Shown here in pieces: positions 8,971 to 48,589 of a stretch of DNA of 49,246 bases (position 1 is the stretch's first letter; every line of letters begins with the position of its first letter). Origin of the DNA: an uncultured Acetatifactor sp. (GTDB lineage: Bacteria > Bacillota > Clostridia > Lachnospirales > Lachnospiraceae); contig CAKRRS010000013.1 in the NCBI GenBank assembly GCA_934394665.1, forward strand, positions 1-49,246, in the 5' to 3' direction. The notes beneath the pieces were generated by a model, which saw only the letters and a program-made list of their open reading frames with translations, was not told the DNA's origin and made no database searches. Position numbers and translations under genes: made by a program.

Positions 8971-8998
8971 CTGTCAGTCACTGTAGGGGAGCAATACT
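8971..8998. repeat. Upstream arm of a long inverted repeat around the Spo0A-like gene
   Basis: Aligned with the reverse complement of 9446-9471, 25 positions match with three single- or two-base gaps; the core CTGTAGGGGAG / CTCCCCTACAG is perfect. The arm ends 26 nt before the TTG start. Confidence 0.7.
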
Positions 8999-9023
8999 CG
9001 ACAAGTATAAAGGGGGACTTGTT

Positions 9024-9401
9024 TTGGATATTGTAGCAGTTAAAGATTCCGAATTGGAAAGATACGTAACCAATATCATGTTGGAGATAGGGGTGCCTGC
9101 ACACTTGAAGGGTTATCACTATTTACGTGATGCAATTATTTTGTCAGGGAAAGACATGGAGGTGGTAAGCAGCGTTACCAAGCTGCTGTATCCCACAATC
9201 GCGAAACATTTCAAGACCACAGATCAAAAAGTGGAACGTGCGATCAGGAACGCAATCGAAGTATCCTGGGCACGCGGAAATGTGGAGACATTCGAAAAAA
9301 TCTTTGGATATTCGATAGCTTCCGGAAGGACCAGACCGACGAACAGCGAGTACATCGCCCGTATCGCCGACAACATCCGACTGGACTACAAGGCTATGTA
9401 A
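9024..9401 (+). CDS. Stand-alone Spo0A C-terminal-domain DNA-binding protein
   Basis: 125 residues matching the effector domain of the sporulation regulator Spo0A: GVPAHLKGYHYLRDAIIL, then SVTKLLYPTIAKHF and VERAIRNAIEVSWARGN, the recognition-helix segment, and PTNSEYIARIADNIRLD. No receiver domain with a phosphorylatable Asp is present, so it would not be controlled by a phosphorelay directly. The TTG start at 9024 is preferred because AGGGGGA lies 6-7 nt upstream; longer frames upstream lack a ribosome site and look non-coding. It is monocistronic, ends in a terminator and is bracketed by a long inverted repeat. 0A-box-like words (CGACAAG at 8999-9005, TTTCGACG at 9438-9444) are near both ends; autoregulation is only a suggestion. 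Confidence 0.85.
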   Translation: MDIVAVKDSELERYVTNIMLEIGVPAHLKGYHYLRDAIILSGKDMEVVSSVTKLLYPTIAKHFKTTDQKVERAIRNAIEVSWARGNVETFEKIFGYSIASGRTRPTNSEYIARIADNIRLDYKAM

Positions 9402-33406: not shown

Positions 33407-33451
33407 AAAAAATACCCAATAGGAAGCCAATGAGACAAGGAGGTGCATGGA

Positions 33452-36400
33452 ATGCCTGCAGTACCGGTGGAACACTATCCACAGCTGCTGTCCGCAGTGA
33501 TGCAAAGCGAAAAAATCGTATATTTATGCGGCGCAGGGGCATCCATGTCTCTGGGAGAGCATCAACTGAGCTGGACTAAGTGGCTCCTGGCAGGGAAGGC
33601 GTATCTGACGGAAACGGAACAGACCGAACTGGAACAGAGGATAGGTGACTGGACAACCGCAGAACTGATCGATGCGGCAACCTATCTGCTCGCCGGATTA
33701 AAGGCGTCGGGGAACTATCAAGACTTCATGGACCGGACGATTGCATCGGTACACCCGGTCAACAAAACCTTCTGCGAAGCACTGCAAAAAATCTGGCGCG
33801 CAGGAGATCTGATCACCACAACCAATTATGATATGCAGATCGAGGAAGCGGTAGGCGGCGCCGGTATCTCCTATACGACACCGGCGGATATCCTGTCCGT
33901 AATCCGCGCAAAAAGCGCAAACAAAGTGATTCACCTGCACGGACGCTATGACAGAGAAAGCGGTGCGGATGACATCATTGCGGACGGACCGCAGTACCAG
34001 AGCATTCTGGATAACAGCGGCGCGCAGTTTATACAGAATCTCCTCAGCACCTACCCCATTGTGATCGTCGGCTGCGGCGGAACCGTGGAAGATCCGAACC
34101 TGGCGGGATTCTTATCGTTTACGGCGGAGAAGCTGGGGACATCCGATATCCCCTATTTTTACCTGATGAAAAAGGGCGATACGGCACCACCATTGCCGGG
34201 GAATGCAGTGATCCTATTCTATGGAGACGACTATACAGATCTCCCGGAATTCTTGCAGGAGCTCTCGCTGCTACGATTACAGCAAAGAGTGGGATTAAGA
34301 CCACTGGTTTCTGTAAATCCTTATCAGGAGCGCAAACCGGTGACATCTGCGTTCGGAAGAATGCATTTCGCCAACGGATTTCTGAAATTTACCGGCAGAG
34401 AGACCGAACTGGCAGCCCTGAACCGGTTCCTGAAAGAGGAACCGGACTTCCTGTGGTGGACGATCCTGGGAGAAGGCGGTATGGGAAAAAGCCGTCTTGC
34501 GTTGGAATGGCTGCGAAAGCTCCCGGCGCACTGGTTTGGATACTTTGCCAAAAAGAATGCGGATGCCGTGTGTGACTTCCCACCGTTCACAGATACGGTA
34601 GTCATATTTGATTACGTACTGGGACAGGAACAGCCATGCGCGGAGACCATTGCTGCGTATCTGGAAAGCTTCGCAAATACGCCGTATAAACTCAGGATGC
34701 TTCTGCTGGAACGGCGGGAACAAACCACAGAAGACGACTGGCTGTTGCGTATGAAACGGGCGATGCCTTCCGGGGCAAGACTGGAATTCGAAGCCGGTAG
34801 CTACAGGGAACAACCCTTATCTCTGGGCGCACTGGGAGAACAGGATACACTGGAATATACGGAGAATTATCTGGAGAACTATCTCCCCCTGCTTAAGACA
34901 ACCGCATTTATCACAGACTGCCGCAACCACAGGCGAAGAACAGCAGAAGAGATCCAAAAGACTTACCATGATTCCATGGCACCGGATTGCGACCGCCCCC
35001 TGTATCTGAGCATCTATATTGAAGTATGGCTCAGCAAGGAGGGACACTTTCGGTTGAATTCCACGGAAGAGCTTCTGTCGGAATACCTGAACAAGGAGAA
35101 GAAACGCTGGAGTGTACAGCTGGGACGGGAAGACCTGGTGGATTCTTATCTGCGCATCCTGGCGGTGGCATGTGCGATCGACAGCTTCAACCTGACGGAC
35201 CGGCACGGAGATGACTATCTGGATGAAGACTGCCGGAAGCTGATCCGATATTTCGATGAGCAAAGCGCCCGTCCCGGGGCGGAGAACCTGTTCCGGGAAT
35301 TGTATACACGGATGGATACCTTGATAGAAAACGGAGACGATACAGAGGACTCCGTAATGGAACTATTGCGTGATCCGGAGAAACTGGAACGAAAAGGGAA
35401 GATAGAAGCGGCAGAGATGGTCCGGAGCTTAGGCGGAGAAGCGCGATTCGGGTATATGGCAAGCTATGTCAAACTGGATGCCAATCTGGACGAAATGTAT
35501 CTCTGGATGCTCGTCAATGCGGGAATCGCCACACCGGAGCAGGAGCAAAGGGCGCAGGAGCTCCATGAAGCCGAGCAGAAAAGAGTCGCGGCATTACCGC
35601 AGCATGCATGGATCGTGGAGCCGGTGTTCCCGGATATTATCAGAGAATATATCGTATCGTATGCTATCAATGAAAGAGATATCGAACGGTTCGCCAGACT
35701 GGCAAGAGCGAATTCCGTGATGGGACTGGCGCATTTCATTGCACTGGCACTGGAAGACTGGCCGGACAATCAGAAGCTGCAGAAGCTGGCGGTCACACCG
35801 CCGTCGGAGGTGCTGAACTATTTTGAATATTATGTGGGACTATTGCCGAATCTACGGGCGGTGAAAGACCTGTGGGCAGTAGAGGAAGCTTTACTGCAGA
35901 GCGAACCGTTATATGCCGGGCATGCATTGGAAGTATGGAGAAGGATCGCGATTACACTGACGGAACGGGGAGATATGGAACGACTGTATGAGAGCAGCGT
36001 ACGATTCCTGACCTATCTGCGGAAAACGGCGAAAAAGAGAACCATTACCAAAGAGGCAGTGGATGTCATGGAAGCATATTGTGTAGGATTGCACAATGCG
36101 GAAGAAGTGGAGAAATACAGCAGGCTGTTAGAACAGTGCAGTGAATTCGCCAAGGAACTGCGTGAACTTCCGGAGATCGGCGAATTCTGCTGCAGCAACT
36201 ATGCAAATTTGCAGCATCTGAAATTGTACGAAGACCGGAAAGCGGATCTGCAGCCGGAATGGGAACGGATCGCGGAACTTCTCCGACAGTGGGAGTATCC
36301 GGAGAACCTGTGTCGGTTATCTCTGGCAACGGCACAGGGGGCAATCCGGTATCTGGTGAAGAAACAGGATCTCTCAGGGTTGCAATATCTGCAAAGCCTG

Positions 36401-36874
36401 ACCCATACGATATATGGGAAAACAAACCTCTGTGAGGCAGCGGAAGCAGAGAGCCTGTGCATCGCCAATCTCGTAGCATTCCGGAAGAAAGCGGATCCAG
36501 AACAATACGAGATCATACAACAGTACCAAAAGGAATTCCCACAATCCAAGGCAATCCAAATGTCCTATGTCAGCGTAAGCGACCTATTTTATGCCCAAAC
36601 GGCGGATTACAAGAAAGTACCGGATGCTGTGCTGCGTCTCGCTAAGGAATGGGCAGAACGGTATCCGGAAGACATACAGTTCCCGGAGAGATATTTCGGA
36701 CTGCTGCTGTCCGGACTGTTCTACGCGCGAGCACATGATCTCAGAAATGAGCAGAGGAGACTGTTCCGGGAGCTGAAGCGGATCGCTGAAAACACGGATG
36801 ATTCGGAGTATGAAGAGCGAAGCCAGATGTTAGAAATAGTGCACAGCTTACAGGCACTTTATGGCTATCGCTGA
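33452..36874 (+). CDS. SIR2-STAND multidomain protein, probable antiphage defence (Avs5/DSR-like)
   Basis: 1140 residues in three parts. (1) SIR2 domain, about 20-275: LCGAGASM at 25-32, TTNYD at 123-127, HLHG at 161-164 with the catalytic-type His163, and a GCGGTVEDPNL segment; such domains cleave NAD+ in defence proteins. (2) STAND NTPase, about 310-560: GRETEL lead-in, Walker A GEGGMGKS at 340-347 and Walker B VVIFD at 383-387. (3) A long helical C-terminal half (about 600-1140) that looks like TPR-type repeats, the usual sensor of STAND proteins. No membrane segment. The ATG at 33452 sits 8 nt behind AAGGAGG. It is not a sugar enzyme and lies between wzx and a wzy-like gene; an own promoter precedes it. 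Confidence 0.85.
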   Translation: MPAVPVEHYPQLLSAVMQSEKIVYLCGAGASMSLGEHQLSWTKWLLAGKAYLTETEQTELEQRIGDWTTAELIDAATYLLAGLKASGNYQDFMDRTIASVHPVNKTFCEALQKIWRAGDLITTTNYDMQIEEAVGGAGISYTTPADILSVIRAKSANKVIHLHGRYDRESGADDIIADGPQYQSILDNSGAQFIQNLLSTYPIVIVGCGGTVEDPNLAGFLSFTAEKLGTSDIPYFYLMKKGDTAPPLPGNAVILFYGDDYTDLPEFLQELSLLRLQQRVGLRPLVSVNPYQERKPVTSAFGRMHFANGFLKFTGRETELAALNRFLKEEPDFLWWTILGEGGMGKSRLALEWLRKLPAHWFGYFAKKNADAVCDFPPFTDTVVIFDYVLGQEQPCAETIAAYLESFANTPYKLRMLLLERREQTTEDDWLLRMKRAMPSGARLEFEAGSYREQPLSLGALGEQDTLEYTENYLENYLPLLKTTAFITDCRNHRRRTAEEIQKTYHDSMAPDCDRPLYLSIYIEVWLSKEGHFRLNSTEELLSEYLNKEKKRWSVQLGREDLVDSYLRILAVACAIDSFNLTDRHGDDYLDEDCRKLIRYFDEQSARPGAENLFRELYTRMDTLIENGDDTEDSVMELLRDPEKLERKGKIEAAEMVRSLGGEARFGYMASYVKLDANLDEMYLWMLVNAGIATPEQEQRAQELHEAEQKRVAALPQHAWIVEPVFPDIIREYIVSYAINERDIERFARLARANSVMGLAHFIALALEDWPDNQKLQKLAVTPPSEVLNYFEYYVGLLPNLRAVKDLWAVEEALLQSEPLYAGHALEVWRRIAITLTERGDMERLYESSVRFLTYLRKTAKKRTITKEAVDVMEAYCVGLHNAEEVEKYSRLLEQCSEFAKELRELPEIGEFCCSNYANLQHLKLYEDRKADLQPEWERIAELLRQWEYPENLCRLSLATAQGAIRYLVKKQDLSGLQYLQSLTHTIYGKTNLCEAAEAESLCIANLVAFRKKADPEQYEIIQQYQKEFPQSKAIQMSYVSVSDLFYAQTADYKKVPDAVLRLAKEWAERYPEDIQFPERYFGLLLSGLFYARAHDLRNEQRRLFRELKRIAENTDDSEYEERSQMLEIVHSLQALYGYR

Positions 36875-36914
36875 CAATATGCCCGGAATATCGGTAAACA
36901 GGAAGGAAAATCAT

Positions 36915-38024
36915 ATGCTGGAATTACGAAAAAAACTGAGTAACTATCAGGAAGTCTTCTATCTGCTGTTCCTGCTCCCTATGACGGGCATGTCCTCTAT
37001 GGGAATTAATTCCGATGACAGGATCTATCTCTACGTATTTGCTGTGGCAATGTTGTTTTTATTACTTAAAATGGCGGTGACGGATTTTACCTGGAGAGAA
37101 ATCCTGGTCATGGCAGTGCTGACCCTATTATTCGGTGTGAATTTCCTGCGCAACGGCGAGAAGACGCTGATCCTGACCGTAATGGCAATCTTCGGGGCGA
37201 AGAACGTGGATCTCGATAAAGTCATGAAATATGCACTGTGGGAGAAAGCGGTGCTGACTGTGGGGACGCTGACGTTGGCGGCGACTGGGGTGATAGAGAA
37301 TGAAATAGTTTCAGTGCCTAAAAATTGGAAAATAGTTGAACTGCCGTGTTATGGATATTATCAACCTAATATGGCATTTGCAAATATTTTTGTAGTATTG
37401 CTATTGATAATTTTGATTTACAGAGACAAACTTAGATGGTACAGCTATATTATAGGTACAGGAATAATGTTTGTAGCCTACCAAATATTTATGTGTAGAA
37501 CAGGAATTTTAATGTGGATACTACTGTGTCTTATGATTTTTGGCTATGCATTATTTAGGTATTTTCATCTAGAAAAAGAATATTTATCTTTGCTTTTGCT
37601 GTTGCCTGTCGTACTTGTAGGGGTAACGTTAATTCTTCCGCCAATAGCACAGAATAATTTTGAGTTAGCTGTATGGTTTAATAAAATATTTACAGGACGT
37701 ATAGATCATATCAATCAAGTGTATGGGCAGATTTGGAAATTGTTGCTAGGACATGTTCCCAAGGAAGCTTTTGATAATATGTATTTTACTACATTATATA
37801 ACTATGGATGGATTCTTTTTACATTCAGTTTGGTTGCATACATTATTGGAATGTGGTATTGTATCAAAAAGGATCAAGATTATAATGTGATAGGTCTTGG
37901 GATTATGTCAGTATACGGTTTTATGGAACTATTACCGCTTAGCATATTGTGGAATTTGCCATTATTGTATCTTTCACAGATTTTGTTTCAGGGGAAAAAA
38001 TTGAGGAATGAACAATTACAATAA
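36915..38024 (+). CDS. Wzy-like O-antigen polymerase, mosaic gene
   Basis: 369 residues with about ten helices and no large soluble domain. The opening YQEVFYLLFLLPMTGMSSMG and the loop CYGYYQPNMAFANIFVV (with the P-N-x3-A pattern related to the H-P-N motif of Wzy proteins), followed by FMCRTGILMWILLC, suggest a repeat-unit polymerase. The first about 125 codons have the base composition of the genes to the left, the rest that of the AT-rich genes to the right, with an abrupt change near 37290. The ATG at 36915 (AGGAAGGA upstream) is chosen over the in-frame ATG at 36861, which overlaps the SIR2-STAND gene. It overlaps the next gene by 17 nt. Confidence 0.78.
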   Translation: MLELRKKLSNYQEVFYLLFLLPMTGMSSMGINSDDRIYLYVFAVAMLFLLLKMAVTDFTWREILVMAVLTLLFGVNFLRNGEKTLILTVMAIFGAKNVDLDKVMKYALWEKAVLTVGTLTLAATGVIENEIVSVPKNWKIVELPCYGYYQPNMAFANIFVVLLLIILIYRDKLRWYSYIIGTGIMFVAYQIFMCRTGILMWILLCLMIFGYALFRYFHLEKEYLSLLLLLPVVLVGVTLILPPIAQNNFELAVWFNKIFTGRIDHINQVYGQIWKLLLGHVPKEAFDNMYFTTLYNYGWILFTFSLVAYIIGMWYCIKKDQDYNVIGLGIMSVYGFMELLPLSILWNLPLLYLSQILFQGKKLRNEQLQ

Positions 38025-39429
38025 AAAATATCAGATCATAGAAAGCTATGGACTGTTTCTACTAGATGTTATTTGCATTACGATATCTTATGCATTAGCG
38101 TATATGATACGATTTCGAGAAGAAACATCACCATTAGGTAATCGAGAAATTGCGCAAATTTATTTGCCATTTCTTTTGATTTGTATGTTGAATAACTTTT
38201 TTACCAATGAATATAAACATTTTTTCCAGAGAGGCTATTATTATGAATTACTGCGAGTAATACGTTACAATGTAATCCTGTTCTTGGCAACGGGGGCGTA
38301 TATCTATGCATTTAGATTGGAATTGGAATTTTCTAGATTATTGTTAGGTTATTTCGTTGTTATCAATACTGTAGTTACTTACTTAGTGCGAATCGCGTTT
38401 AAAAACTATATGCGCAGATATTATAGTAAGAGCCGCAACAGCGATAAGGTTATGATTGTGACGACTGAAACGGAAGCGGAACATGTCATGGAACAGATTG
38501 CAAAGGATGCTGCGTGGAGTTATGAGGTTAATTCCATCGCTTTGATTGATTCAGAACATGTAGGCGAGAGCATCCACGGGATTCCTATCGTGGCGAAAGA
38601 AGAAAATGTCATTGATATTGCAAGACAGAGTGCAGTAGACGTGGTACTGCTCTATTGTCCTTATATGGACAATCGGAAACTGGAACTTTTAGTGCAGTCA
38701 TTCTTGGCAATGGGTGTAGTTTGTCACAACTGTGTGGAGCAGTTTGGGTTCGAAATTCCATGCAGAAGTGTAGGAAAATTTGCAGGAATGCCGGTGATGA
38801 CTTATGTCATGACGGAGATGGACTACCGCCGAATGATGATCAAAAGATTGGTAGATATTGTGGGCGGAAGTGTGGGCGTAATAATTACGTTACTGCTTAC
38901 TCCTTTTGTAGCATTGGCAATCAAATTTGAATCAAAAGGACCTGTATTCTTCTCTCAAGTACGCATTGGAAGGAACGGCAGGAGATTCAAGATGTACAAG
39001 TTTCGTTCCATGTATATTGATGCAGAAGAACGAAAAAAAGAGCTGATGGAGCAGAACGAAGTAAAGGGACTGATGTTCAAGATGGACAATGATCCAAGAA
39101 TTACTAAAGTGGGACGATTTATAAGAAAAACTAGTATAGATGAATTACCTCAGTTTTTTAATGTACTAAAAGGAGATATGAGTCTTGTGGGAACAAGACC
39201 ACCGACAGTAGACGAATTTGAGCAGTATAATATTTATTATCGAAGAAGACTTAGTATTACCCCTGGCTTAACTGGAATGTGGCAGGTTAGTGGGAGAAGT
39301 GATATTAAGGATTTTGATGATGTTGTAAAACTGGATTTAAAATATATTGATGAATGGTCTTTACGGCAAGATTTTAAAATTATATTACAAACAGTAGTGG
39401 TTGTATTGTTTGGCAAAGGTTCAAAATAG
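38008..39429 (+). CDS. Undecaprenyl-phosphate sugar phosphotransferase (third PGT), mosaic gene
   Basis: 473 residues. Five hydrophobic segments including the re-entrant one, a cytoplasmic Rossmann-like part (about 150-260, VMIVTTETEAEHVM) and the catalytic domain with KRLVDIVGGSVGVII, VRIGRNGRRFKMYKFRSMY, RKTSIDELPQFFNVLKGDMS and LVGTRPPTVDE. The GTRPPT form (in place of GPRPE) is typical of WbaP/EpsE-type enzymes of Gram-positive capsule loci, which usually load glucose or galactose. Base composition is AT-rich at both ends but about 50% G+C in the middle (about 38410-39110). It starts inside the wzy-like gene. Confidence 0.92.
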   Translation: MNNYNKKYQIIESYGLFLLDVICITISYALAYMIRFREETSPLGNREIAQIYLPFLLICMLNNFFTNEYKHFFQRGYYYELLRVIRYNVILFLATGAYIYAFRLELEFSRLLLGYFVVINTVVTYLVRIAFKNYMRRYYSKSRNSDKVMIVTTETEAEHVMEQIAKDAAWSYEVNSIALIDSEHVGESIHGIPIVAKEENVIDIARQSAVDVVLLYCPYMDNRKLELLVQSFLAMGVVCHNCVEQFGFEIPCRSVGKFAGMPVMTYVMTEMDYRRMMIKRLVDIVGGSVGVIITLLLTPFVALAIKFESKGPVFFSQVRIGRNGRRFKMYKFRSMYIDAEERKKELMEQNEVKGLMFKMDNDPRITKVGRFIRKTSIDELPQFFNVLKGDMSLVGTRPPTVDEFEQYNIYYRRRLSITPGLTGMWQVSGRSDIKDFDDVVKLDLKYIDEWSLRQDFKIILQTVVVVLFGKGSK

Positions 39430-39523
39430 AAAAATAGGGAGAGATTCTGCAAAGAGTTTCTATGAAACGGGATAAGTTTTTAACATTCTACAATAGAATA
39501 GCAGATTCAGTATACTAAAAAAT

Positions 39524-40297
39524 ATGTGTGATACTAAGTTTGAACATAAGGTAAATAAACAATTGATACCAGTATGCCCAATAATGGGAGTGGATATTGC
39601 TGCGATTAATATGGAATGGCTTTTACAATTTACGGAAGAAAATATCAGAGAGTTATCTGGTGACTATATGTGTGTGTCCAATGTACATACAACAGTAATG
39701 GCATATGAGAATAGTATGTATCGAAATATTCAAAACGGTGGGATTATGGCAATCCCTGATGGAGGACCACTTTCATCAGTTGGAAAAAGGCGTGGATATC
39801 GAGAGATGCAGCGAACAACAGGACCTTCTTATATGGAGATTATTTTAAGTAAATCTAAGGAAAAAGGCTATAAACATTTCTTTTATGGATCTACAGAGAA
39901 TACATTAGAAAAACTGAAGGAAGAACTACTGAAAAAATATTCAAATGCTCAAATTGTTGGTATGTACAGTCCACCATTTAGAAAACTAACTCAAGCAGAA
40001 GATGAGAAAATTATTGAGATGATAAATGCTAGTGGTGCTGATTTTATATGGGTTGGTCTAGGAGCACCAAAGCAAGAGCAATGGATGGCAGAACATCAGG
40101 GCAAGGTAAAAGGTTTTATGGTAGGAGTTGGCGCTGCATTCGATTATATGGCTCAAAATATTAAAAGAGCACCGGAATGGATGCAAAACATGAATTTGGA
40201 GTGGCTATATAGATTAATGCAGGATCCCAAGAGGCTTTTTACAAGATATCTTAAAACAAATTTTAAATTCATTTGGTGTATATTAAAGGGGAGATAA
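39524..40297 (+). CDS. WecG/TagA/CpsF-family glycosyltransferase (GT26)
   Basis: 257 residues, full length for GT26. Motifs are PVCPIMGVDIAAINM near the start, MCVSNVHTTVMAYENS, IPDGGPLSSVGKRRGY followed by RTTGPSYMEIIL, FYGSTENTLEKLKEEL and GLGAPKQEQWM, the latter being the conserved G-x-P-K-Q-E-x-W signature. Enzymes of this family add ManNAc or related sugars as the second residue on lipid-linked precursors; which is used here is not known. The C-terminal helix-rich tail (WLYRLMQDPKRLFTRYL) is the membrane-contacting appendage of the family. No good ribosome site is seen before the ATG. Confidence 0.92.
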   Translation: MCDTKFEHKVNKQLIPVCPIMGVDIAAINMEWLLQFTEENIRELSGDYMCVSNVHTTVMAYENSMYRNIQNGGIMAIPDGGPLSSVGKRRGYREMQRTTGPSYMEIILSKSKEKGYKHFFYGSTENTLEKLKEELLKKYSNAQIVGMYSPPFRKLTQAEDEKIIEMINASGADFIWVGLGAPKQEQWMAEHQGKVKGFMVGVGAAFDYMAQNIKRAPEWMQNMNLEWLYRLMQDPKRLFTRYLKTNFKFIWCILKGR

Positions 40298-41505
40298 TGA
40301 CAGATAAAAAAAATATACTTTTGGTTCATAATTATTATCAACTTCCAGGTGGAGAAGACACTGTAGTGAATAATGAAAAGAAGATGCTTGAAAATCACGG
40401 ATATAATGTTTTTCTTTATACCCGTGATAACAAGGAACTGCAAGGGATAAGTTTGATAGGAAAAATTTCTTTTGCAATAAATTTTCTGTTTAATTTTCGT
40501 ACATTTGTGGAAGTAAGAAAAATTATAAAACAATGTAATATTGATTTGGTTCATGTTCATAATACATTAAGTCTAGTAAGTCCCTCCGTTTATTATGCTG
40601 CATTATCAAAAAAAATCCCTGTTGTTAAGACAATACATAATTTTAGGCTTGTTTGTCCTAATGCACTTTTTTATAGGGATGGTAATATATGTGAAGATTG
40701 TATTACAAAAGGACTACATAGTGCGATAAAGCATAAATGCTATAGAAATAGTAGAATACAGACGATTGCATGTGTGCTAAACTTGAAAATTCATAGATTC
40801 TTAGGAATATATAAAAAGTTGAATTATATTTGTTTGACAGAGTTTAATAGAAAAAAATTATTGAGCGTAAAGGGTATTAGTCCCAATAATGTATACATAA
40901 AACCCAATTTTACAAAAGCAAATGATAGATATATGCCACTGAGAGAGCGTATGAAAAAATTTATATATGTCGGAAGAATTGAGAAAATAAAAGGAATTGA
41001 CATTTTACTCAATGCATGGTGTCAGCTTGAAGATAAAACAATAGAATTATTAATGTATGGGACAGGACCAGAACAAGATTGGTGCGAAGAATTTATTAAA
41101 GAAAATCATTTGAATATAAAAATGATGGGATATATTGACAATGATAAAATTAAAGATCAATTAGCTGAAAGTATCGCTTTAATATTTCCGTCAAAACTGT
41201 ATGAAGGATTTCCAATGGTAATCACAGAAGCTTTTTCGGTAGGAACTCCTGTTATTGCTAGCAAAATAGGAAATGCTAAATATATAGTAGACAATGGTGT
41301 TAATGGAATATTGTATGAGACAGACAACCACATGGAACTGGCAAACATTGTACAATACTATGGGAATATAGTCACTGAAGAGATGTGCCTGGCAGCAAAA
41401 GAAAAATATAAGAATTGCTATTCTATGGAATCTAACTACAAAATTTTAAATGATATATATAACAATGTTATACGAGGAAATATAATAAATGAAAATAGTT
41501 TATGA
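40297..41505 (+). CDS. GT4 glycosyltransferase
   Basis: 402 residues, GT-B fold. The opening ILLVHNYYQLPGGEDTVVNNE is typical of a capsule GT4 group; further motifs are VHVHNTLSLVSPSVYYA, a Cys-containing segment around ICEDCITKGLHSAIKHKC, FIYVGRIEKIKGIDILLNAW, LMYGTGPEQDWCEEFI and FPSKLYEGFPMVITEAF with the nucleotide-sugar E-x7-E type motif. The ATG at 40297 shares one base with the previous stop, and GGGGAGA precedes it. AT-rich codon use. Specificity unknown. Confidence 0.9.
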   Translation: MTDKKNILLVHNYYQLPGGEDTVVNNEKKMLENHGYNVFLYTRDNKELQGISLIGKISFAINFLFNFRTFVEVRKIIKQCNIDLVHVHNTLSLVSPSVYYAALSKKIPVVKTIHNFRLVCPNALFYRDGNICEDCITKGLHSAIKHKCYRNSRIQTIACVLNLKIHRFLGIYKKLNYICLTEFNRKKLLSVKGISPNNVYIKPNFTKANDRYMPLRERMKKFIYVGRIEKIKGIDILLNAWCQLEDKTIELLMYGTGPEQDWCEEFIKENHLNIKMMGYIDNDKIKDQLAESIALIFPSKLYEGFPMVITEAFSVGTPVIASKIGNAKYIVDNGVNGILYETDNHMELANIVQYYGNIVTEEMCLAAKEKYKNCYSMESNYKILNDIYNNVIRGNIINENSL

Positions 41506-42595
41506 TAAGAATGCTGTAACATTATTGTTTAAGCTTACCATATTATATATGATATTGGGGACTTCAGGAAGCGTTAAATATGCTATATCGTTTATTATTT
41601 TTGCTGCATTTTTTTTTTCAAAAGGAAAGGTATATATTAATAGGACTAAATGGAAATTTTTAATTCCGATAGTTACATTATTGATAATAGGCATATTACA
41701 ATTAGTATTTATAGAGGATATAAACTTAAAATTTTTTTTAAAACGTTTATTTTTAATGTGTTATCCCATGATATTAGGACTATTCATATTTGAAGTTGAG
41801 TCGCAATATAGCACTGAAACATTTATGAATATGCAATTTGTGGCGATTTGTATAACACAGATTTTAACGATAGGCTTTTCTGCAAATGATCTAATGGAAT
41901 CACAGTATGCATTCATTTTTGGAGCATACACTATATATTACTTATATATTAAAAAGAAAAAAATGTTATTTTTTTCTTTTTTAATGCTTGTTATTGCTAA
42001 CAAGAGAATAGCATTGGCAGGAGCAATAATATGTTTATTTATTTTAATCATTTATGATTTAGGGATACTCATACACAAAAAATATATTGATAAAATGATA
42101 GCAGTGGTAAGTCTTATTGCGACATATATATATATATATGCATGTAAGACTTATATTATCGAAGATGTATTTCGTAAACTTCATATCAATACAAATGGTC
42201 GAATTGATACTTGGAGAAATTTTAGGGATATATATTATATATCCCCCATTTTCAGAGGAGCTGGAATAGGAAAAGTAGGAATGGTGTTAAATCAATTAAA
42301 TATTCCAACATTTGAAATGTTGCACAATGACATTCTTACTTATTATATTGAAATAGGTTTCATTGGATTTGGAATATTTTTAGTAAGTCTATTTAACATG
42401 GGACAGGCTTGCAGCGAAAACAGAAAAAGGCTGGTAATAACATTAATTATAGTATATACATTGATTAACTATTGCACTGATAATATCAGTATATATATTA
42501 ACTATTGGACGCCGTTAAGTGTAATGATATTGTCTATTATAAATGCAAATATGAAAGGGGAAAAAGCTAATTCATATAAGCTGGAAAGAGTATGA
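41489..42595 (+). CDS. O-antigen polymerase-like membrane protein (second Wzy candidate of the AT-rich block)
   Basis: 368 residues, about ten helices, very AT-rich. There are a late outer-loop GAGIGKVGMVLNQLN and then MLHNDILTYYIEIGFIGFGIF, which matches the H-N-D-x-L-x-x-x-x-E-x-G pattern of the Wzy_C/O-antigen ligase fold, so polymerase or ligase is likely. GAGGAAA lies about 11 nt before the ATG at 41489. It overlaps the preceding GT4 by 17 nt and the following one by 4 nt. With 36915-38024 it makes two polymerase candidates in one block. Confidence 0.78.
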   Translation: MKIVYDKNAVTLLFKLTILYMILGTSGSVKYAISFIIFAAFFFSKGKVYINRTKWKFLIPIVTLLIIGILQLVFIEDINLKFFLKRLFLMCYPMILGLFIFEVESQYSTETFMNMQFVAICITQILTIGFSANDLMESQYAFIFGAYTIYYLYIKKKKMLFFSFLMLVIANKRIALAGAIICLFILIIYDLGILIHKKYIDKMIAVVSLIATYIYIYACKTYIIEDVFRKLHINTNGRIDTWRNFRDIYYISPIFRGAGIGKVGMVLNQLNIPTFEMLHNDILTYYIEIGFIGFGIFLVSLFNMGQACSENRKRLVITLIIVYTLINYCTDNISIYINYWTPLSVMILSIINANMKGEKANSYKLERV

Positions 42596-43719
42596 AGAAG
42601 AAAATTTTAATATTTCACAATACAATAGCCCCTTACAGAATAAAATTTTTTAATCAGCTTTCTGAAAAATTTGATGCTAAAATATGCTTGTATTATGAAA
42701 ATTTGAAGGACCAAAAATTTAATTATGACGATATTAGACGGCAATTTGATTTTTACCCTGATTATTTAGATGGCCATATTAAAGTGTTAAGTCGGGAAAT
42801 TTATACAGGGCATGTAAAGAGAATAAAAAAATATAGACCAGATATAGTAATGGTTCCAGAATATGGTGAGGCGTTATGGTGTGCTGTTTTATTAAAAATA
42901 ATAATGGGATACCAATATAAAATAGTGACAATATGTGATGATAGTCTGGATTATGCAGTGAACTGCAAAGGAATGAGGAAAAAATCACGCCAGATGGCAG
43001 TTAAATTTCTGGATGGAATAATATTGTGCAATGATGAAGCTAAACAGTGGTATGATCAGCACTATGATGTAAATACTTTTACATTTCCGATAATTCAGGA
43101 TGAGTGTGATTATCGATTTAATATAGATAATATAATAACAAATGCAGAAAAAATTAGAATAGAATATAATCTTACGGGTAAAAGAGCATTTTTGTATGTG
43201 GGAAGGATAGCACCAGAAAAAAATCTCGAATACCTTGTGGCTTCATTTATTGAGTATCATAAAAAGTACCCGGAAAATATGTTGCTAATAGTAGGAGGAG
43301 CAATAGAATCATGTAGACAATATTTAGACGAAATTCAGAATATTATACACAGTAATCATGCGGCAGATTATATTAAATGTGTGGGGCGTAAAGAAGGAGA
43401 CGAATTAAAGAGCTGGTACGCAGTAGGGCAAATCTTTGTATTGCCGAGCAAGTCAGAACCATTTGGAACAGTCGTTAATGAAGCGTTAATTATGGGCGAA
43501 TATGTTATGGTCTCTAAGCATGCGGGGTCTTGTTGTCTGGTTGATAAGGAAAATGGAGAAATTATTGATATAGATTGCAAGAATATAGATTTTACTAAAG
43601 TATCGGAAGAAGTACCTGTGTTAGGAGAGAGAATACAGAAAAGAGATAGTAAGATGAAACTCCATTTTGATGAGAGAATGGAGGAATGTGTTAAGTGGAT
43701 TGAATGGCTTGACAAATAG
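42592..43719 (+). CDS. GT4 glycosyltransferase
   Basis: 375 residues, GT-B fold. It opens ILIFHNTIAPYRIKFFNQLS, like the enzyme at 30625-31779, and has FLYVGRIAPEKNLEYLV, LLIVGGAIESCRQYLDEI and LPSKSEPFGTVVNEALIMG with the E-x7-E-type nucleotide-sugar motif. The 4-nt overlap at its start couples it to the polymerase-like gene. It lies directly before the GT11 and GT6 genes and so probably builds the acceptor backbone they decorate (inference). Confidence 0.89.
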   Translation: MKKKILIFHNTIAPYRIKFFNQLSEKFDAKICLYYENLKDQKFNYDDIRRQFDFYPDYLDGHIKVLSREIYTGHVKRIKKYRPDIVMVPEYGEALWCAVLLKIIMGYQYKIVTICDDSLDYAVNCKGMRKKSRQMAVKFLDGIILCNDEAKQWYDQHYDVNTFTFPIIQDECDYRFNIDNIITNAEKIRIEYNLTGKRAFLYVGRIAPEKNLEYLVASFIEYHKKYPENMLLIVGGAIESCRQYLDEIQNIIHSNHAADYIKCVGRKEGDELKSWYAVGQIFVLPSKSEPFGTVVNEALIMGEYVMVSKHAGSCCLVDKENGEIIDIDCKNIDFTKVSEEVPVLGERIQKRDSKMKLHFDERMEECVKWIEWLDK

Positions 43720-43736
43720 TCGAGGAGATGAATGCT

Positions 43737-44594
43737 ATGTTAATAATGTATTTTAATGATGGCTTGGGAAACCAAATGTTTCAGTTTGCTTTGTACGAGA
43801 AATTGAAACATTTGGGAAAAGATGTGGTTGTATATGACAATGATTTAAGAAAGAAAAGCGCATTGCATAATGGCCTGGAACTGGAAAGGGTTTTCGGACT
43901 CAAGTATGATAGAATTGAATATGATGATTTTAAAAAATATGATACAACCAATTTTGTAAATCACGTTGTACGAAAACTGTTATGGGAAAAAAAATATATT
44001 ATTTATGAGGAAAAACAGCTTTCGTATGATAATACCATATATGGATTGGATAATTGCTGTCTAAAAGGATATTGGCAGAGCGAAAAGTATTTTGAGGATA
44101 TAAAAGAAATAATAAAGACAGACTATACGTTTCCAGAGTTTACAGATCAGAAAAATATGGAACTGGCTCAAAGAATATCAACGACACAATCGGTTGCTGT
44201 TCATGTGAGGAGAGGAGACTATATTAGTAAGCAATATTACAATTCCTTTGGAGTAGTTTGCTCCGAGCAGTATTATGTCAATGCTTTACGTTTGCTTCAC
44301 AACCAAATTGGCGAATTTGAACTGTATGTATTTAGCAATGATATAGAGTGGTGCAAAGAGTTATTTAAAAATGAAAAAGCAACCTATGTCACAGGAAATA
44401 CAGGCAAAAACAGTTATCGTGATATGCAGCTTATGGCATTATGCAAACATCAAATTATAGCAAATAGCAGCTTTAGCTGGTGGGCGGCATGGCTTAATAA
44501 TAATCAGGATAAAATTATCGTAAGTCCTAAAACATGGATAAATGGACAAAATGTAAAGGATATATGGTGCAAAGAATGGATAAGAATAGATTAA
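43737..44594 (+). CDS. Alpha-1,2-fucosyltransferase family protein (GT11)
   Basis: 285 residues, usual GT11 length. Motif I is HVRRGDY (156-162), the GDP-fucose site; the start has FNDGLGNQMFQFALYEKL, the G-x-GNQ-F-QYA signature, and the end has IANSSFSWWAAWLN, as in FUT1/FUT2 and bacterial WbsJ/FutC relatives. GT11 enzymes transfer fucose from GDP-fucose to the 2-OH of a terminal galactose, making H-antigen-like ends. The ATG at 43737 is preferred (GAGGAG 8 nt upstream) over the one at 43728; both are in frame. GDP-fucose synthesis genes are not in the window. The next gene is a GT6 and overlaps by 19 nt. Confidence 0.93.
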   Translation: MLIMYFNDGLGNQMFQFALYEKLKHLGKDVVVYDNDLRKKSALHNGLELERVFGLKYDRIEYDDFKKYDTTNFVNHVVRKLLWEKKYIIYEEKQLSYDNTIYGLDNCCLKGYWQSEKYFEDIKEIIKTDYTFPEFTDQKNMELAQRISTTQSVAVHVRRGDYISKQYYNSFGVVCSEQYYVNALRLLHNQIGEFELYVFSNDIEWCKELFKNEKATYVTGNTGKNSYRDMQLMALCKHQIIANSSFSWWAAWLNNNQDKIIVSPKTWINGQNVKDIWCKEWIRID

Positions 44595-45364
44595 ATATAG
44601 CAATATTATATATTGCATTAGGAAAATATAGTGTATTATGGAAAGAGTTTTACGAGAGTTGTGAAAAATTTTTTTTGTTAGATGAAAATAAGCATTATTA
44701 TATATGGACGGACGATGAATCAATAAAATCATCAGAAAAAATTACGGTTATAAAACAACAGGATATGGGATGGCCGAAAAATACGTTGATGAGATTTTAT
44801 ATGTTCAATCAGAAAAAAGAGGAACTAGAAAAATATAATTATATATTTTTCTTTAATGCAAATCTGAAATTCCTTAAAGAAGTAGGGAACGATTTATTAC
44901 CCCAAAATGAACAGCTTTTGGTAACGTTACATCCAACTTACTATAAGGAAGAAAACCCTGATAAATATCCATACTACAGAAATCCGTCTTCAACGGCATA
45001 TATTCCCTATGGCAAAGGGCAATATTATGTTCAAGGAGCTTTGTTTGGCGGAAAAGGACAAGCTTTCTTAGAAATGACACAGTTATTGGAAAAAGCAACA
45101 CAGATAGACTTGGATAATGATATCATTGCAGATGTTCATGATGAGTCGCAGTTGAATAAATATATTGTGGATAGAAATGATTTAAAAGTGGTCGGACCTG
45201 AGTATATTTATCCGGAAGGGTATGACTTGGACATTGAACCGATAATATTAAGCAGGGACAAAAGCAAATATTTTGATGTTGAAACATTAAAGTATGGTAA
45301 ATCAAAAAAAGTGAAACACATCATTAAAAAAATAATACATATTTTTAAAAATAGGGAGAATTGA
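44576..45364 (+). CDS. GT6-family glycosyltransferase (ABO / alpha-1,3-Gal(NAc)T-like)
   Basis: 262 residues, the size of bacterial GT6 enzymes. It opens LNIAILYIALGKYSVLWKEF, has DMGWPKNTLMRFYMF (60s-70s), the sugar-nucleotide region YIFFFNANLKF with N94-A-N96 in place of the DxD metal motif, as in metal-independent bacterial GT6, LHPTYY, YYVQGALFGGK and HDESQLNKY (188-196), all counterparts of mammalian ABO transferase segments. The family adds GalNAc or Gal in alpha-1,3 linkage to a galactose, often fucosylated. ATG at 44576 fits family N-termini; the in-frame ATG at 44534 is less likely. It overlaps the GT11 gene by 19 nt, so the two are made together. Confidence 0.9.
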   Translation: MDKNRLNIAILYIALGKYSVLWKEFYESCEKFFLLDENKHYYIWTDDESIKSSEKITVIKQQDMGWPKNTLMRFYMFNQKKEELEKYNYIFFFNANLKFLKEVGNDLLPQNEQLLVTLHPTYYKEENPDKYPYYRNPSSTAYIPYGKGQYYVQGALFGGKGQAFLEMTQLLEKATQIDLDNDIIADVHDESQLNKYIVDRNDLKVVGPEYIYPEGYDLDIEPIILSRDKSKYFDVETLKYGKSKKVKHIIKKIIHIFKNREN

Positions 45365-46303
45365 ATGAAAAAGATTACTATAGTTACAGCCTATTTCGAC
45401 TGTAAAAGAGGGTACAGAGCAGAACAAAAGAGAACGGATAATGAATATATAGAATACTTTAAATTTTGGGCTCGTATGAAGAATGAAATGGTTATATATA
45501 CGGAGAAAAGATTTGAAGAAGCTATATGTAACGTTAGGAAAGCTTATGGGCTTGAGGATAAAACGCGAGTTATCATAATAGATAATATATACAAAATAGA
45601 AGAAGGCCTTTATGCTCAGATGAAGCAGGTGGAGGCTAATTCGAAATTTGTACAGTGGAGATACAGAAATAATGATATTTCAAATGAAGCAGACTATGAT
45701 TATATCATGCTGATGAAGTACTGGTGTATGGCTGACGCTGTAAAGTACTGTGAGAATGAGACAACGATTGCATGGATTGATTTCGGGTGGAATCATGGCG
45801 GACAAAAATTTGTAAGTTCAGAGGAGTTTAGTTACGAATGGAACTATGATTTTTCTGATAAAATACAATTATATTCGCTTACTGACCCCAAGAGTGATAC
45901 AGGAATAATTAGATTACAACAAATGACAGACAGCATTATGGGGGCAAATATAATATGTCCTGATAAAATGTGCGCTAGGTTATATGCGCATGTGTTGGAA
46001 GCAATGGAATCTTTGTTATCATTGGACTGCTATGATGACGATCAAATGCTATTACGCATGGCATATAAAAGGCATACAGAGGATTTTGAGGTAAATATAT
46101 CCGATTGGTTTTTGCCCTTAAAAGAATATGGAGGAGCACATTTAACGGTGAGAGTAGAGGAATCTAAGGAAACGGTTCCCATTTTGAAAAGAGTACGAAA
46201 TAAACTATATAAAATAATGCATGGCAAGAGCCAGGCGGATAGGGAATTTGAGGAAAGGTTATTAGGTGTATATGAAGCAGAGAACCGTAGTGGAAGAATC
46301 TAA
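45365..46303 (+). CDS. HtrL/YibB (WlaTC-type) putative glycosyltransferase
   Basis: 312 residues, soluble. The opening ITIVTAYFDCKRGYR, then EYFKFWARMKNEMVIYTE, VQWRYRNNDISNEADYDYIMLMKYWCMADAV and WIDFGWNHGG match the HtrL/YibB family (PF09612 as remembered), which includes the Campylobacter WlaTC-type proteins in lipooligosaccharide loci. The WIDFG segment may replace a DxD motif. A C-terminal basic helix follows (KRVRNKLYKIMHGKSQ). It begins 0 nt after the GT6 stop. Reaction unproven. Confidence 0.75.
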   Translation: MKKITIVTAYFDCKRGYRAEQKRTDNEYIEYFKFWARMKNEMVIYTEKRFEEAICNVRKAYGLEDKTRVIIIDNIYKIEEGLYAQMKQVEANSKFVQWRYRNNDISNEADYDYIMLMKYWCMADAVKYCENETTIAWIDFGWNHGGQKFVSSEEFSYEWNYDFSDKIQLYSLTDPKSDTGIIRLQQMTDSIMGANIICPDKMCARLYAHVLEAMESLLSLDCYDDDQMLLRMAYKRHTEDFEVNISDWFLPLKEYGGAHLTVRVEESKETVPILKRVRNKLYKIMHGKSQADREFEERLLGVYEAENRSGRI

Positions 46304-47297
46304 AATTAATAAGGTATATAAAAAAAACAGTATTGATATTGTAATAACACCGCATGCAGAATTTACAGGCTGTATGGCAGCTATGGTTCAGTCTATAGTT
46401 GATAACTCTAACGATGAATATAATTATGATATTGTTGTATTACATAAGGAAATTGATATAGAAGATATAGAATGCATAAAAAATATCCCTCAGCGGAAAG
46501 AGAATATAACAATAAGATTCTATGATGTTTCAACTATCATAGCAACAATCAAATTTTTCAAAACGGAAAATACGTATGCCACTACATATTTTCGCATTTT
46601 AATACCATATATAATGAATGAATATGAGCGTGTTTTATATATTGACGCAGATACAATTGTAGAAAGTGATTTGGTAGAATTATATCAACAAAATATTGAA
46701 GAATATTGCCTGGCAGCGGTGGCTGATTATGGCGGAAATTATCATTGCCTCGAAAAAGACAGTGAATTATTAAAATATAGAAAAAAAATATTAAATATGA
46801 AAGATCCTATGAAATATTTTAATGCGGGTATTTTATTGATGAATACACAAAATATTCGTACGAACTATGGAATGGAAGAACTTTTGTGCGCAGAAAATAA
46901 AGGTAAATTCAAACAAAAAGATCAGGATTTGCTGAATTATTTTTTCGCAGAGAAGACATTGTTTTTAGATTATAAATATAATATGCTGGTTACAATTAAT
47001 TTTGAAAAGAACCAGTATTTTAATCAGGAAGAAAAAGAAAGAATAAGAAAAGCTTTTGAAAATCCTTATATTATTCATTATGTGGGAAGATATAAGCCGT
47101 GGATATACAGATCAGTTCCTTATAGTGATGAATTCTGGAAATATGCAGAAAAAACACCCTTGATACAGAGAATCGAATCAGAGATGGGATACGATTTGGC
47201 GTATGAAAATTTACGGAAACAAATTCGACGAAATAAGGTGGGCATTAAACAGGTATTAAAACTTGTTGCTGAAAGTATAAAGGTGAAATTTAAATGA
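46272..47297 (+). CDS. GT8 glycosyltransferase
   Basis: 341 residues. GT8 GT-A layout: SIDIVITPHAEFTGCMAAMV at the start, TYFRILIPYIMNEYERVLYIDADTI with the metal-binding D-A-D, KYFNAGILLMNTQNI, KQKDQDLLNYFF and IIHYVGRYKPW, the last being the H-x-x-G-x-x-K-P-W motif of the family. These retaining enzymes use UDP-glucose, UDP-galactose or similar. The ATG at 46272 is preferred over GTG at 46266; either overlaps the preceding gene by about 32 nt. Its stop overlaps the pyruvyl transferase start by 4 nt. Confidence 0.91.
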   Translation: MKQRTVVEESKINKVYKKNSIDIVITPHAEFTGCMAAMVQSIVDNSNDEYNYDIVVLHKEIDIEDIECIKNIPQRKENITIRFYDVSTIIATIKFFKTENTYATTYFRILIPYIMNEYERVLYIDADTIVESDLVELYQQNIEEYCLAAVADYGGNYHCLEKDSELLKYRKKILNMKDPMKYFNAGILLMNTQNIRTNYGMEELLCAENKGKFKQKDQDLLNYFFAEKTLFLDYKYNMLVTINFEKNQYFNQEEKERIRKAFENPYIIHYVGRYKPWIYRSVPYSDEFWKYAEKTPLIQRIESEMGYDLAYENLRKQIRRNKVGIKQVLKLVAESIKVKFK

Positions 47298-48589
47298 AAA
47301 AGATATTGTTATTTACTGACCTAAATAAACTGGACCGCAGAGTGTTGGAACCATGTAATTATGAAACGCTCTGGAATGATTACTGTCAACAACAGGGAGG
47401 AAATACCGGAAACAAATTGTTTACATTAGCAGTAGAGAAGCTGCTATTAAGAGATGATGTGACATATCAGCACTATGACAGGACTATGACAAAAGATTAT
47501 ATTAATCATAATTTTGATATTGTCTTAATACCTATGGCCAATATATTGAATCCGCATCCTACAGTTAAGAGGGAAATGGAAGAATTGGCGCAGTTCTTTA
47601 ATGATATTAAAGTCAGAACCTATATAATAGGAATCGGTGCACAGGCTGCAACATATGATGATTTCGATAAATTGTGTAAAGAAATACGCGAGCCGGCCAC
47701 TCGATTTTTAAGTGCGATATACAATACGGGGGGAGAATGTGCTTTAAGGGGAGAATTTACGAATGAAGTATTTAAAGCTTTAGGATTTAATTCGGCAGTC
47801 GTAACAGGATGCCCATCTATATACCAGTTGGGACGGAATATTGAAATTAAAAAGAAGAAAATCAGAGAGAAAGAGTTTAAAGCCTCGTTAAATGGTGATG
47901 TATTATATTTACAAGAAGCCAATATCCTGAGGTATTTGAGAGCACAAAATGTGTTTTTTGTTGACCAGAATGAATTCATAGATATATTATATGATCCTAA
48001 GTATAATTTTACTATAGAACAGGTTATTAAAAAATATACTTTTGATGCGCTAAAAGCACTAACAGAAAAAAGAGTAAAATTATATTACGATATTCCAACA
48101 TGGATCAAGTTCTTTAAACAACAGGATATTGATTTTTCGTTTGGAAGCAGAATACATGGTAATATAATTGCATTATTGAGTGGTACTCCGGCTATGGTTT
48201 TTTGTAGAGATACAAGGACAAGAGAAATGGCAGAATTTTTTAAGATTCCGCATGTGGAAAAAGTAGACAAGCATACATCCTTATATGATTTATTTTGCCA
48301 GGCAGATTACGAGGAGTTTAATAGTAATTTTTCGACACACTATGATGCATATGAGAGATTTTACGTAGATAATGATATATTACCATCAATCGGTGAAGGC
48401 ATAGATAATTATAATAAATGGTACAATAATGTAAAATATGAAATGTTTGAAAGTGGTGCATTAGAAGACAATACTAAGAAAATTCAAGAAATTGTGTATA
48501 AGCATGCTATGGCTAGTCGATTGATAGATTCCAAGTATTATTATGGCAGGAAAGCAAAAAGGTTAATAAAAGATGGTAATTCAAGATAA
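47294..48589 (+). CDS. Polysaccharide pyruvyl transferase family protein
   Basis: 431 residues. The family pattern (PF04230) appears as NTGNKLFTLAVEKLLL near the start (the G-N-x-G-D/N region), VVTGCPSIYQLG in the middle, and FSFGSRIHGNIIALLSGTPAMVF, the conserved S-R-x-H-x-x-x segment with the catalytic His. Members move a pyruvyl group from phosphoenolpyruvate to a sugar hydroxyl to give a ketal with a negative charge on the glycan; some relatives are simply capsule-locus proteins of unknown reaction. It is coupled to GT8 genes on both sides (4-nt and 17-nt overlaps). Confidence 0.87.
   Translation: MKKILLFTDLNKLDRRVLEPCNYETLWNDYCQQQGGNTGNKLFTLAVEKLLLRDDVTYQHYDRTMTKDYINHNFDIVLIPMANILNPHPTVKREMEELAQFFNDIKVRTYIIGIGAQAATYDDFDKLCKEIREPATRFLSAIYNTGGECALRGEFTNEVFKALGFNSAVVTGCPSIYQLGRNIEIKKKKIREKEFKASLNGDVLYLQEANILRYLRAQNVFFVDQNEFIDILYDPKYNFTIEQVIKKYTFDALKALTEKRVKLYYDIPTWIKFFKQQDIDFSFGSRIHGNIIALLSGTPAMVFCRDTRTREMAEFFKIPHVEKVDKHTSLYDLFCQADYEEFNSNFSTHYDAYERFYVDNDILPSIGEGIDNYNKWYNNVKYEMFESGALEDNTKKIQEIVYKHAMASRLIDSKYYYGRKAKRLIKDGNSR

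What the first reader, a model, noticed from the sequence alone, without database searches (positions are those of the whole stretch)
43737..45364. Adjacent GT11 and GT6 genes: a candidate blood-group A/B-like epitope made by the bacterium
Seen: a GT11 with HVRRGDY and a GT6 with the NAN variant motif overlap by 19 nt. Known: in animals, GT11-type FUT makes the H structure Fuc-alpha1,2-Gal and the GT6 ABO enzyme adds GalNAc or Gal to it; some bacteria carry isolated GT6 enzymes. Inference: the pair, made from one mRNA, would cap the polysaccharide with an A- or B-like trisaccharide. This could affect natural antibody responses, phage receptors and host glycan tolerance. GDP-fucose genes must be elsewhere.
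Basis: partly seen in the sequence, partly recalled or inferred. Interest (0 to 1): 0.82.

Follow-up and report, generated by a model that had tools for sequence, protein, structure and literature searches.

The report
Bacterial blood-group-like sugar gene pair
A gut-type bacterium carries, end to end, relatives of the two enzymes that build the ABO blood-group sugars in people; such enzymes were already known from a few bacteria, but the same two genes also sit together in other bacteria and in viruses of marine cyanobacteria, so the pair is probably not only a way of mimicking an animal host.

Summary
In detail: a GT11 gene (43737-44594) and a GT6 gene (44576-45364) overlap by 19 nt in a low-GC polysaccharide cassette of a Lachnospiraceae-like bacterium. 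Catalytic motifs are intact; the modelled GT6 matches BoGT6a (TM 0.85/0.91). Best reading: GT11 adds alpha-1,2-fucose to a galactose, then GT6 adds an alpha-1,3 sugar, as in E. coli O86. The donor triad Q-G-A with T at position 235 is nearer to human B (M-G-A, S) than to A (L-G-G, G) or BoGT6a (A-G-G), so UDP-Gal is favoured, not proven. Two BoGT6a ligand-contact residues near the acceptor are changed (T134P, W189V). The kind is known. The added finding is its recurrence: a GT11 lies within 2.5 kb of GT6 at 6 of 9 bacterial loci and for 111 of 145 distinct viral GT6 proteins. In three Lachnospiraceae-family genomes with both genes this is 3 of 3 GT6 genes, against 1 of 56 GT4 genes; gmd (GDP-fucose) is there in 3 of 3, and in 0 of 3 genomes with GT6 but no GT11. 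Cyanophages with the pair argue against host mimicry as its only purpose. Pocket residues do not separate paired from unpaired GT6s, and no activity was tested.

The parts
43737..44594 (+). GT11 (PF01531) putative alpha-1,2-fucosyltransferase, 285 aa (ORF can start at 43728); HVRRGDY and NSSFSWW motifs
   Evidence: AF2 model pLDDT 92.4; best PDB fold matches are GDP-fucose fucosyltransferases, weak over the whole chain
44576..45364 (+). [quoted passage not shown]
   Evidence: AF2 model pLDDT 93.8, top fold match BoGT6a 4cj8 TM 0.85/0.91
44576..44594 (+). 19-nt overlap of the two reading frames
36861..48589 (+). low-GC (about 0.28-0.36 from 37.5 kb on) polysaccharide cassette that holds the pair; upstream DNA is about 0.50
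38008..39429 (+). polyprenyl glycosylphosphotransferase (Bac_transf, PF02397), likely start of the repeat unit
39524..40297 (+). WecG/TagA-type glycosyltransferase (PF03808)
40297..41505 (+). GT4 glycosyltransferase (start uncertain; ORF listed from 40273)
41489..42595 (+). Wzy-like polymerase (PF04932, 36.8 bits, cut-off 31.7)
42592..43719 (+). GT4 glycosyltransferase directly before GT11
45365..46303 (+). HtrL_YibB-family protein (PF09612) directly after GT6
46266..47297 (+). GT8 glycosyltransferase (PF01501)
47294..48589 (+). polysaccharide pyruvyl transferase family (PF04230, 46.5 bits, cut-off 25.3)

Best explanation
The pair encodes two consecutive steps in building one branch of a surface polysaccharide repeat. 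GT11 transfers L-fucose from GDP-fucose in alpha-1,2 linkage to a galactose placed by an upstream transferase of the cassette (inferred from family). GT6, made from the next, overlapping frame, then transfers an alpha-1,3 sugar to the same galactose, giving a branched A/B-type trisaccharide. The donor is more likely UDP-Gal (B-like) than UDP-GalNAc (A-like). The lipid-linked unit is then flipped and polymerised (Wzy-like gene in the cassette). Shown here: families, intact catalytic motifs, fold, overlap, recurrence of the pair, and gmd in relatives that have both genes. Inferred: linkages, donor, acceptor, display on the cell.
For: Families over cut-off. GT6 is closest in the PDB to BoGT6a (E 6e-58) and next to human ABO transferases; model superposes on BoGT6a at TM 0.85/0.91, rmsd 1.6. 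Of 18 ligand-contact residues listed for BoGT6a (Table 2 of PMC3961637), 16 align and 12 are identical, including N95, H122, H190, D191, E192 and K231. The triad Q-G-A and T at the place of 235 compare with M-G-A/S in a GTB chain, A-G-G/G in BoGT6a; L-G-G and A-G-G give A, M-G-A and H-A-A give B activity in human enzyme constructs (passages of PMC6351642). A GT11 lies within 2.5 kb of GT6 at 6 of 9 bacterial loci with enough sequence: window, L001, L005, L006, L015, L016; GT4 control 1 of 56. gmd over cut-off in 3 of 3 genomes with both, 0 of 3 with GT6 only. The nearest relatives P0004 (GT6, 57%) and P0100 (GT11, 57%) are each listed with one contig of the same length, 25,370, so probably one contig. 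The GT11 partners of bacterial GT6s are not one clade (AU p 0.014), so the pair seems to have formed or been rebuilt more than once, which points to a shared pathway. Characterised GT6s BgtA and WbnI act on H-type acceptors (passages of PMC12723683).
Against: T134 of BoGT6a is P here and W189 is V, so the acceptor side differs; T134 is also lost in the other paired bacterial GT6s (7 of 7: 6 P, 1 A) while W189 is kept in 4 of 7. Pocket residues do not separate paired from unpaired GT6s, so the pocket does not by itself prove a fucosylated acceptor. 3 of 9 bacterial GT6 loci (L002, L007, L017) have no GT11, and their genomes hold none; two further GT6 scaffolds from faeces (L012, L013) show none in 7.7 and 9.1 kb. 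Q at 266 is found in none of the enzymes whose triads I saw described, and an A at 268 alone does not settle the donor (G-G-A serves a GalNAc enzyme). No GDP-fucose genes in the window ORFs scanned; no genome held. GT11 fold matches are weak over the whole chain (TM 0.43-0.51 in the listed top rows for fucosyltransferases) and no GT11 structure is found by sequence.
Confidence: 0.62

Rival explanations
1. GT6 acts on a galactose that is not fucosylated (alpha-Gal or Forssman-like product), and GT11 fucosylates another sugar of the same repeat; the two are neighbours only because both belong to one cassette.
For: GT6 genes without any GT11 in the genome exist (G264, G606, G002) with similar pocket residues. 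T134P and W189V change the acceptor side.
Against: Adjacency is far above that of GT4 genes in the same genomes and recurs in distant genomes and viruses in both gene orders (GT6 first in L015, L016). The position-122 histidine of BoGT6a is kept (91 of 94 listed homologues); the alpha-1,3-galactosyltransferase of mammals has other residues there (recalled).
Confidence: 0.22
2. The GT6 is A-like (UDP-GalNAc donor), or accepts both donors.
For: Closest solved relative BoGT6a uses UDP-GalNAc (PMC3961637). G-G-A enzymes, which also have A at 268, use GalNAc or both.
Against: BoGT6a and human A enzymes have G at 268 and G at 235; here A and T. Q is larger than the A, L or G at 266 of the GalNAc users seen.
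Confidence: 0.28
3. GT11 uses another GDP-sugar, such as GDP-colitose as WbgN of E. coli O55 does, so the product is only shaped like a blood-group sugar.
For: WbgN is an alpha-1,2-colitosyltransferase that also serves as an alpha-1,2-fucosyltransferase (passages of PMC12723683; its GT11 family is recalled). No GDP-fucose genes in the window ORFs scanned.
Against: Relatives with both genes carry gmd over the curated cut-off, though gmd also serves other GDP-deoxysugars.
Confidence: 0.12
4. The trisaccharide is made but then modified (for example by the pyruvyl-transferase-family gene 47294-48589) or buried inside the chain, so no blood-group epitope is exposed.
For: PF04230 gene over cut-off in the same cassette; HtrL_YibB and GT8 genes follow GT6.
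Against: Which sugar the pyruvyl transferase acts on is unknown.
Confidence: 0.3

Closest known systems
E. coli O86:B7 O-antigen unit: WbnK/WbwK (GT11) and WbnI (GT6)
   Same: A GT11 and a GT6 in one polysaccharide pathway; fucose alpha-1,2 first, then alpha-1,3-Gal, giving blood group B (passages of PMC4202792 and PMC4506291).
   Different: Gram-negative O-antigen; sequences could not be compared here (WbnI not reached, one search found no E. coli match). Direct adjacency of the two E. coli genes was not seen in the passages.
BoGT6a of Bacteroides ovatus (PDB 4AYJ, 4CJ8)
   Same: NXN motif, fold, 103 of 224 aligned residues identical, HDES catalytic stretch.
   Different: A-G-G triad and UDP-GalNAc donor; T134 and W189 kept there, P and V here.
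Human ABO transferase GTB
   Same: About 28-29% identity in the fold alignment, TM about 0.7-0.8; H-P-S-F-Y against H-P-T-Y-Y and M-G-A against Q-G-A.
   Different: Metal-binding DXD replaced by NAN; membrane anchor and Golgi setting absent.
Cyanophage GT11-GT6 pairs (S-8S55, B23, DSL-LC03, S-CAM9, P-SSM2 and others)
   Same: GT11 directly before GT6, frames overlapping by 1-4 nt in the three annotated records opened (L009, L010, L011); in P-SSM2 GT11 lies two genes upstream.
   Different: DXD-type GT6 with Q-G-C triad in 45 of 45 loci, 30-35% identical to the window GT6; marine or lake phages of cyanobacteria.

Membership tests
[quoted passage not shown]
   PF03414 128.2 vs 25 bits; NF041524 273.2 vs 250 bits
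[quoted passage not shown]
   Model pLDDT 93.8; 4cj8 TM 0.85/0.91
[quoted passage not shown]
   NAN, HDES, K at the place of K231
[quoted passage not shown]
   12 of 16 alignable contact residues identical; T10L, T134P, G157A, W189V changed
[quoted passage not shown]
   needs enzyme assay
CAZy GT11 alpha-1,2-fucosyltransferase | GT11 profile match over curated cut-off | tested here: met
   PF01531 119.9 vs 23.9 bits, profile positions 116-297 of 298 in the best stretch
CAZy GT11 alpha-1,2-fucosyltransferase | HxRRxD motif and GT-B fold of GDP-fucose enzymes | tested here: met
   H159, R161, R162, D164 invariant in 40 sequences; fold matches POFUT1, AtFUT1, NodZ, FUT8, weak over the whole chain. 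Naming HxRRxD as the fucosyltransferase motif is recalled
CAZy GT11 alpha-1,2-fucosyltransferase | GDP-fucose available in the cell | tested here: inconclusive
   None in window ORFs scanned, no genome held; gmd in 3 of 3 related genomes with both genes
E. coli O86-type blood-group polysaccharide pathway | GT11 and GT6 in one Wzx/Wzy-type cluster | tested here: met
   Pair beside a priming transferase and a Wzy-like gene; flippase candidate 31824-33341 is weak (WZX_like 37.4 bits, cut-off 300)
E. coli O86-type blood-group polysaccharide pathway | A or B trisaccharide in the polysaccharide | not testable with these tools
   needs NMR or antibody binding

The most novel reading that the evidence does not exclude
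The GT11-GT6 pair is a widely shared, repeatedly rebuilt two-step module for a fucosylated, alpha-1,3-capped galactose that exists independently of vertebrates: phages of marine cyanobacteria carry it as overlapping genes, and gut bacteria, including Lachnospiraceae, carry it in exchangeable surface-polysaccharide cassettes. ABO-like epitopes on gut bacteria would then be a by-product of an older contest over surface sugars between microbes and phages rather than tailored host mimicry.
Probability: 0.35. Interest if true: 0.75.

Novelty: new member of a known kind. Interest (0 to 1): 0.5.

Why it matters
If the product is B-like, a Lachnospiraceae-type bacterium would be a Gram-positive source of the epitope; in 2014 all known bacterial GT6 but one came from Gram-negative species (PMC3961637, introduction), and a survey of alpha-1,3-galactosyltransferase genes in gut microbiomes named mainly Enterobacteriaceae, Pasteurellaceae and Lactobacillus in its abstract (PMC6970434). 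GT6 is rare in this group (over cut-off in 4 of 397 genomes of the family), so such strains would be few and traceable. The wider point is testable: if GT6 next to GT11 predicts an H-dependent enzyme, gene order becomes a cheap guide to which microbes make ABO-like sugars, and the cyanophage pairs offer a case without any animal host.

Tried and rejected
Host mimicry as the sole purpose: set aside because cyanophages carry the pair. The pair as one co-inherited block: in the tree of GT11s with known context (23 rows) the GT6-paired ones needed 3 changes and at least 2 are forced, and holding the 7 bacterial partners together was rejected at AU p 0.0142 (all 15 partners: 0.0144). Limits: I dropped the long rows L244 and L075 and the 23 rows of unknown context for that test, and the bacterial subset was named after the first tree had been seen; the 8 viral partners do form one group (100/100). 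In one search rows of unknown context were counted as not paired. Two earlier quick trees used cut-down domain pieces for the phage GT11s and are not relied on.

Pocket signature for pairing: looked for and not found; paired and unpaired bacterial GT6s share the same residues at the tested places, except H190 being D in L002.

Reaching WbnI: no match in E. coli genomes by distant DNA search. Papers by Brew 2010, Tumbale and Brew 2009 and Thiyagarajan 2012 are not held, so earlier notice of the GT6-GT11 neighbourhood in them cannot be ruled out. Searches for print on the pairing listed no paper whose seen text states it for cyanophages; I saw listings and passages only, plus named sections of PMC3961637 (4, 15 and part 1 of 14) and part 1 of 5 of PMC6970434.

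Counts with misses: weak GT6 matches under the cut-off in G150, G1073 and G1083 were not followed. Viral counts rest, where 80 of 243 and 80 of 297 relatives were kept; the seeds were GT6s that already have a GT11 near by, so the viral share is not an unbiased estimate. A viral scan with the window GT6 itself found nothing. The thresholds of the GT4 control were read off after the fact and rest on 3 GT6 genes (at 5 kb 3 of 3 against 4 of 56; at 10 kb 3 of 3 against 15 of 56; at 1 kb 2 of 3 against 1 of 56).

Full report
Setting. The window is a run of polysaccharide genes from a bacterium of the Lachnospiraceae kind: of 120 listed homologues of its DUF3048 lipoprotein only two carry an organism name, uncultured Acetatifactor and Lachnospiraceae bacterium, and it has a Spo0A C-terminal domain (167.5 bits, under the 200-bit cut-off). 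No genome is held for it. From about 37.5 kb to the last gene the G+C content falls from about 0.50 to 0.28-0.36, as in an exchangeable serotype cassette. That part holds a priming transferase, a WecG-type transferase, two GT4 genes around a Wzy-like gene, then GT11, GT6, HtrL_YibB, GT8 and a pyruvyl-transferase-family gene, all on the + strand.

The observation. GT11 and GT6 are there, intact and overlapping by 19 nt if GT6 starts at 44576. The NAN motif is the ordinary bacterial state: 89 of 94 listed homologues have it.

GT6. Sequence (E 6e-58) and fold (TM 0.85/0.91, rmsd 1.6) put it next to BoGT6a, the B. ovatus enzyme that makes an A-like product, and then next to human ABO enzymes. Of 18 residues that the BoGT6a paper lists as touching ligands (Table 2 of PMC3961637), 16 align and 12 are identical; changed are T10L, T134P, G157A and W189V. 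Against a GTB chain the acceptor stretch is H-P-T-Y-Y for H-P-S-F-Y, and the donor triad Q-G-A for M-G-A; BoGT6a has H-P-G-F-Y and A-G-G. In human enzyme constructs L-G-G and A-G-G give A, M-G-A and H-A-A give B, and G-G-A gives both (passages of PMC6351642). I therefore favour UDP-Gal, with the reservation that Q at this place has not been tested in anything I saw. Q-G-A is common in the family: 22 of 94 homologues. P for T134 is found in 62 of 94 and V for W189 in 44 of 94, so these are traits of a large subfamily rather than decay of this gene.

GT11. Closest relatives are nine proteins at 55-62% beyond the 99% self-match. The model is confident (pLDDT 92.4); its best PDB fold matches are GDP-fucose enzymes POFUT1, plant FUT1, NodZ and FUT8, with TM-scores of about 0.4-0.5. 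No GT11 structure is found by sequence.

How often the two go together. Bacteria: GT6 is rare. Over the cut-off it is found in 4 of 397 genomes of the family of G001, 2 of 391 of its class (one of them G001 again) and 1 of 398 of the phylum of G002 (G002 itself). Among nine bacterial GT6 loci with enough sequence, six have a GT11 within 2.5 kb: the window, L001 (2316 bp away, as the last domain of a fused protein), L005, L006, and the Bacteroidota records L015 and L016, where GT6 comes first; three do not, L002, L007 and L017, and their genomes hold no GT11 at all. Two faecal scaffolds labelled phage, L012 and L013, have GT6 without GT11 in the stretch held. In the three genomes with both, 3 of 3 GT6 genes but 1 of 56 GT4 places lie within 2.5 kb of a GT11 (Fisher p 0.0001, with only three GT6 genes and thresholds looked at afterwards). 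A gmd gene over its curated cut-off is found in those 3 genomes and in 0 of the 3 without GT11.

Viruses: all 45 loci found with the GT6 of cyanophage S-8S55 have a GT11 frame directly before GT6. With three further scans, 145 distinct viral GT6 proteins were gathered: 111 have a GT11 within 2.5 kb (83 of these within 100 bp), 10 farther off, and 24 none in the stretch held, some of them cut short. At 50% identity they form nine clusters, of which eight have at least one member with a GT11 within 2.5 kb; the two large clusters, with 135 of the 145, differ: 103 of 106 frames in one, 51 of 96 in the other. Two of the seeds already had a GT11 near by, and two scans were capped at 80 loci, so these shares are not estimates for all viruses. 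The large-cluster phages have a DXD-type GT6 and triad Q-G-C in 45 of 45 loci. Annotated records show the overlap of 1-4 nt in DSL-LC03, S-8S55 and B23, and GT11 two genes upstream in P-SSM2.

History. GT11s next to bacterial GT6s are mixed with GT11s that stand elsewhere in the same genomes; one clade for the bacterial partners is rejected at p 0.014, with the limits told under Tried and rejected. The viral partners form one group. So the pair was assembled or reshuffled more than once in bacteria, which suggests that selection keeps the two steps together.

Judgement. It is a new member of a known kind, since E. coli O86 makes blood group B with a GT11 and a GT6, and H. mustelae and B. ovatus have A-type GT6s (passages of PMC4202792, PMC12723683, PMC4506291). 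What the tools add is that the pairing is a recurrent module, present in phages of marine and lake cyanobacteria, which makes vertebrate mimicry at most one of its uses. Whether that was noted before in papers not held here I cannot say. The pocket does not tell paired from unpaired GT6s, nothing was assayed, and the fucose supply of this organism is unknown.

Noticed in passing
L020-L064, L009-L011, L014: Cyanophage-type viral contigs carry GT11 directly before a DXD-type GT6 (45 of 45 loci of one scan), often with a nucleotide-sugar epimerase gene before them in annotated phages; a candidate phage-encoded ABO-like glycan step.
   Followed up: partly
window 33443-36874: SIR2-like domain (PF13289, 44.3 bits) with a weak AAA match and a weak ThsA-like PADLOC match, lying between two polysaccharide gene blocks; looks like a defence-type protein inside the capsule region.
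   Followed up: partly
P0023: A protein named for the anaerobic fungus Neocallimastix californiae is 48% identical to the window GT6 over 91% of its length with NAN and Q-G-S motifs; looks like transfer from gut bacteria to a gut fungus.
   Followed up: no
L002 and P0030, P0035 and similar GT6s: A GT6 subfamily with D in place of the active-site H190 (27 of 94 homologues) and C-G-A triads; the one genome examined (alphaproteobacterial MAG G002) has no GT11 and no gmd.
   Followed up: partly
window 12759-14207, 27031-27681, 38008-39429: Three priming sugar transferases (PF02397) in one window, the third in the low-GC part: probably more than one polysaccharide system side by side.
   Followed up: no
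window 8922-9401: Spo0A-like frame that matches only the DNA-binding half of the profile (positions 142-261 of 262, under the cut-off), next to polysaccharide genes.
   Followed up: no
L001 5604-7691: A fused protein with a GT2-like N part and a GT11 C part, 2.3 kb before GT6 in a Lachnospiraceae MAG.
   Followed up: partly
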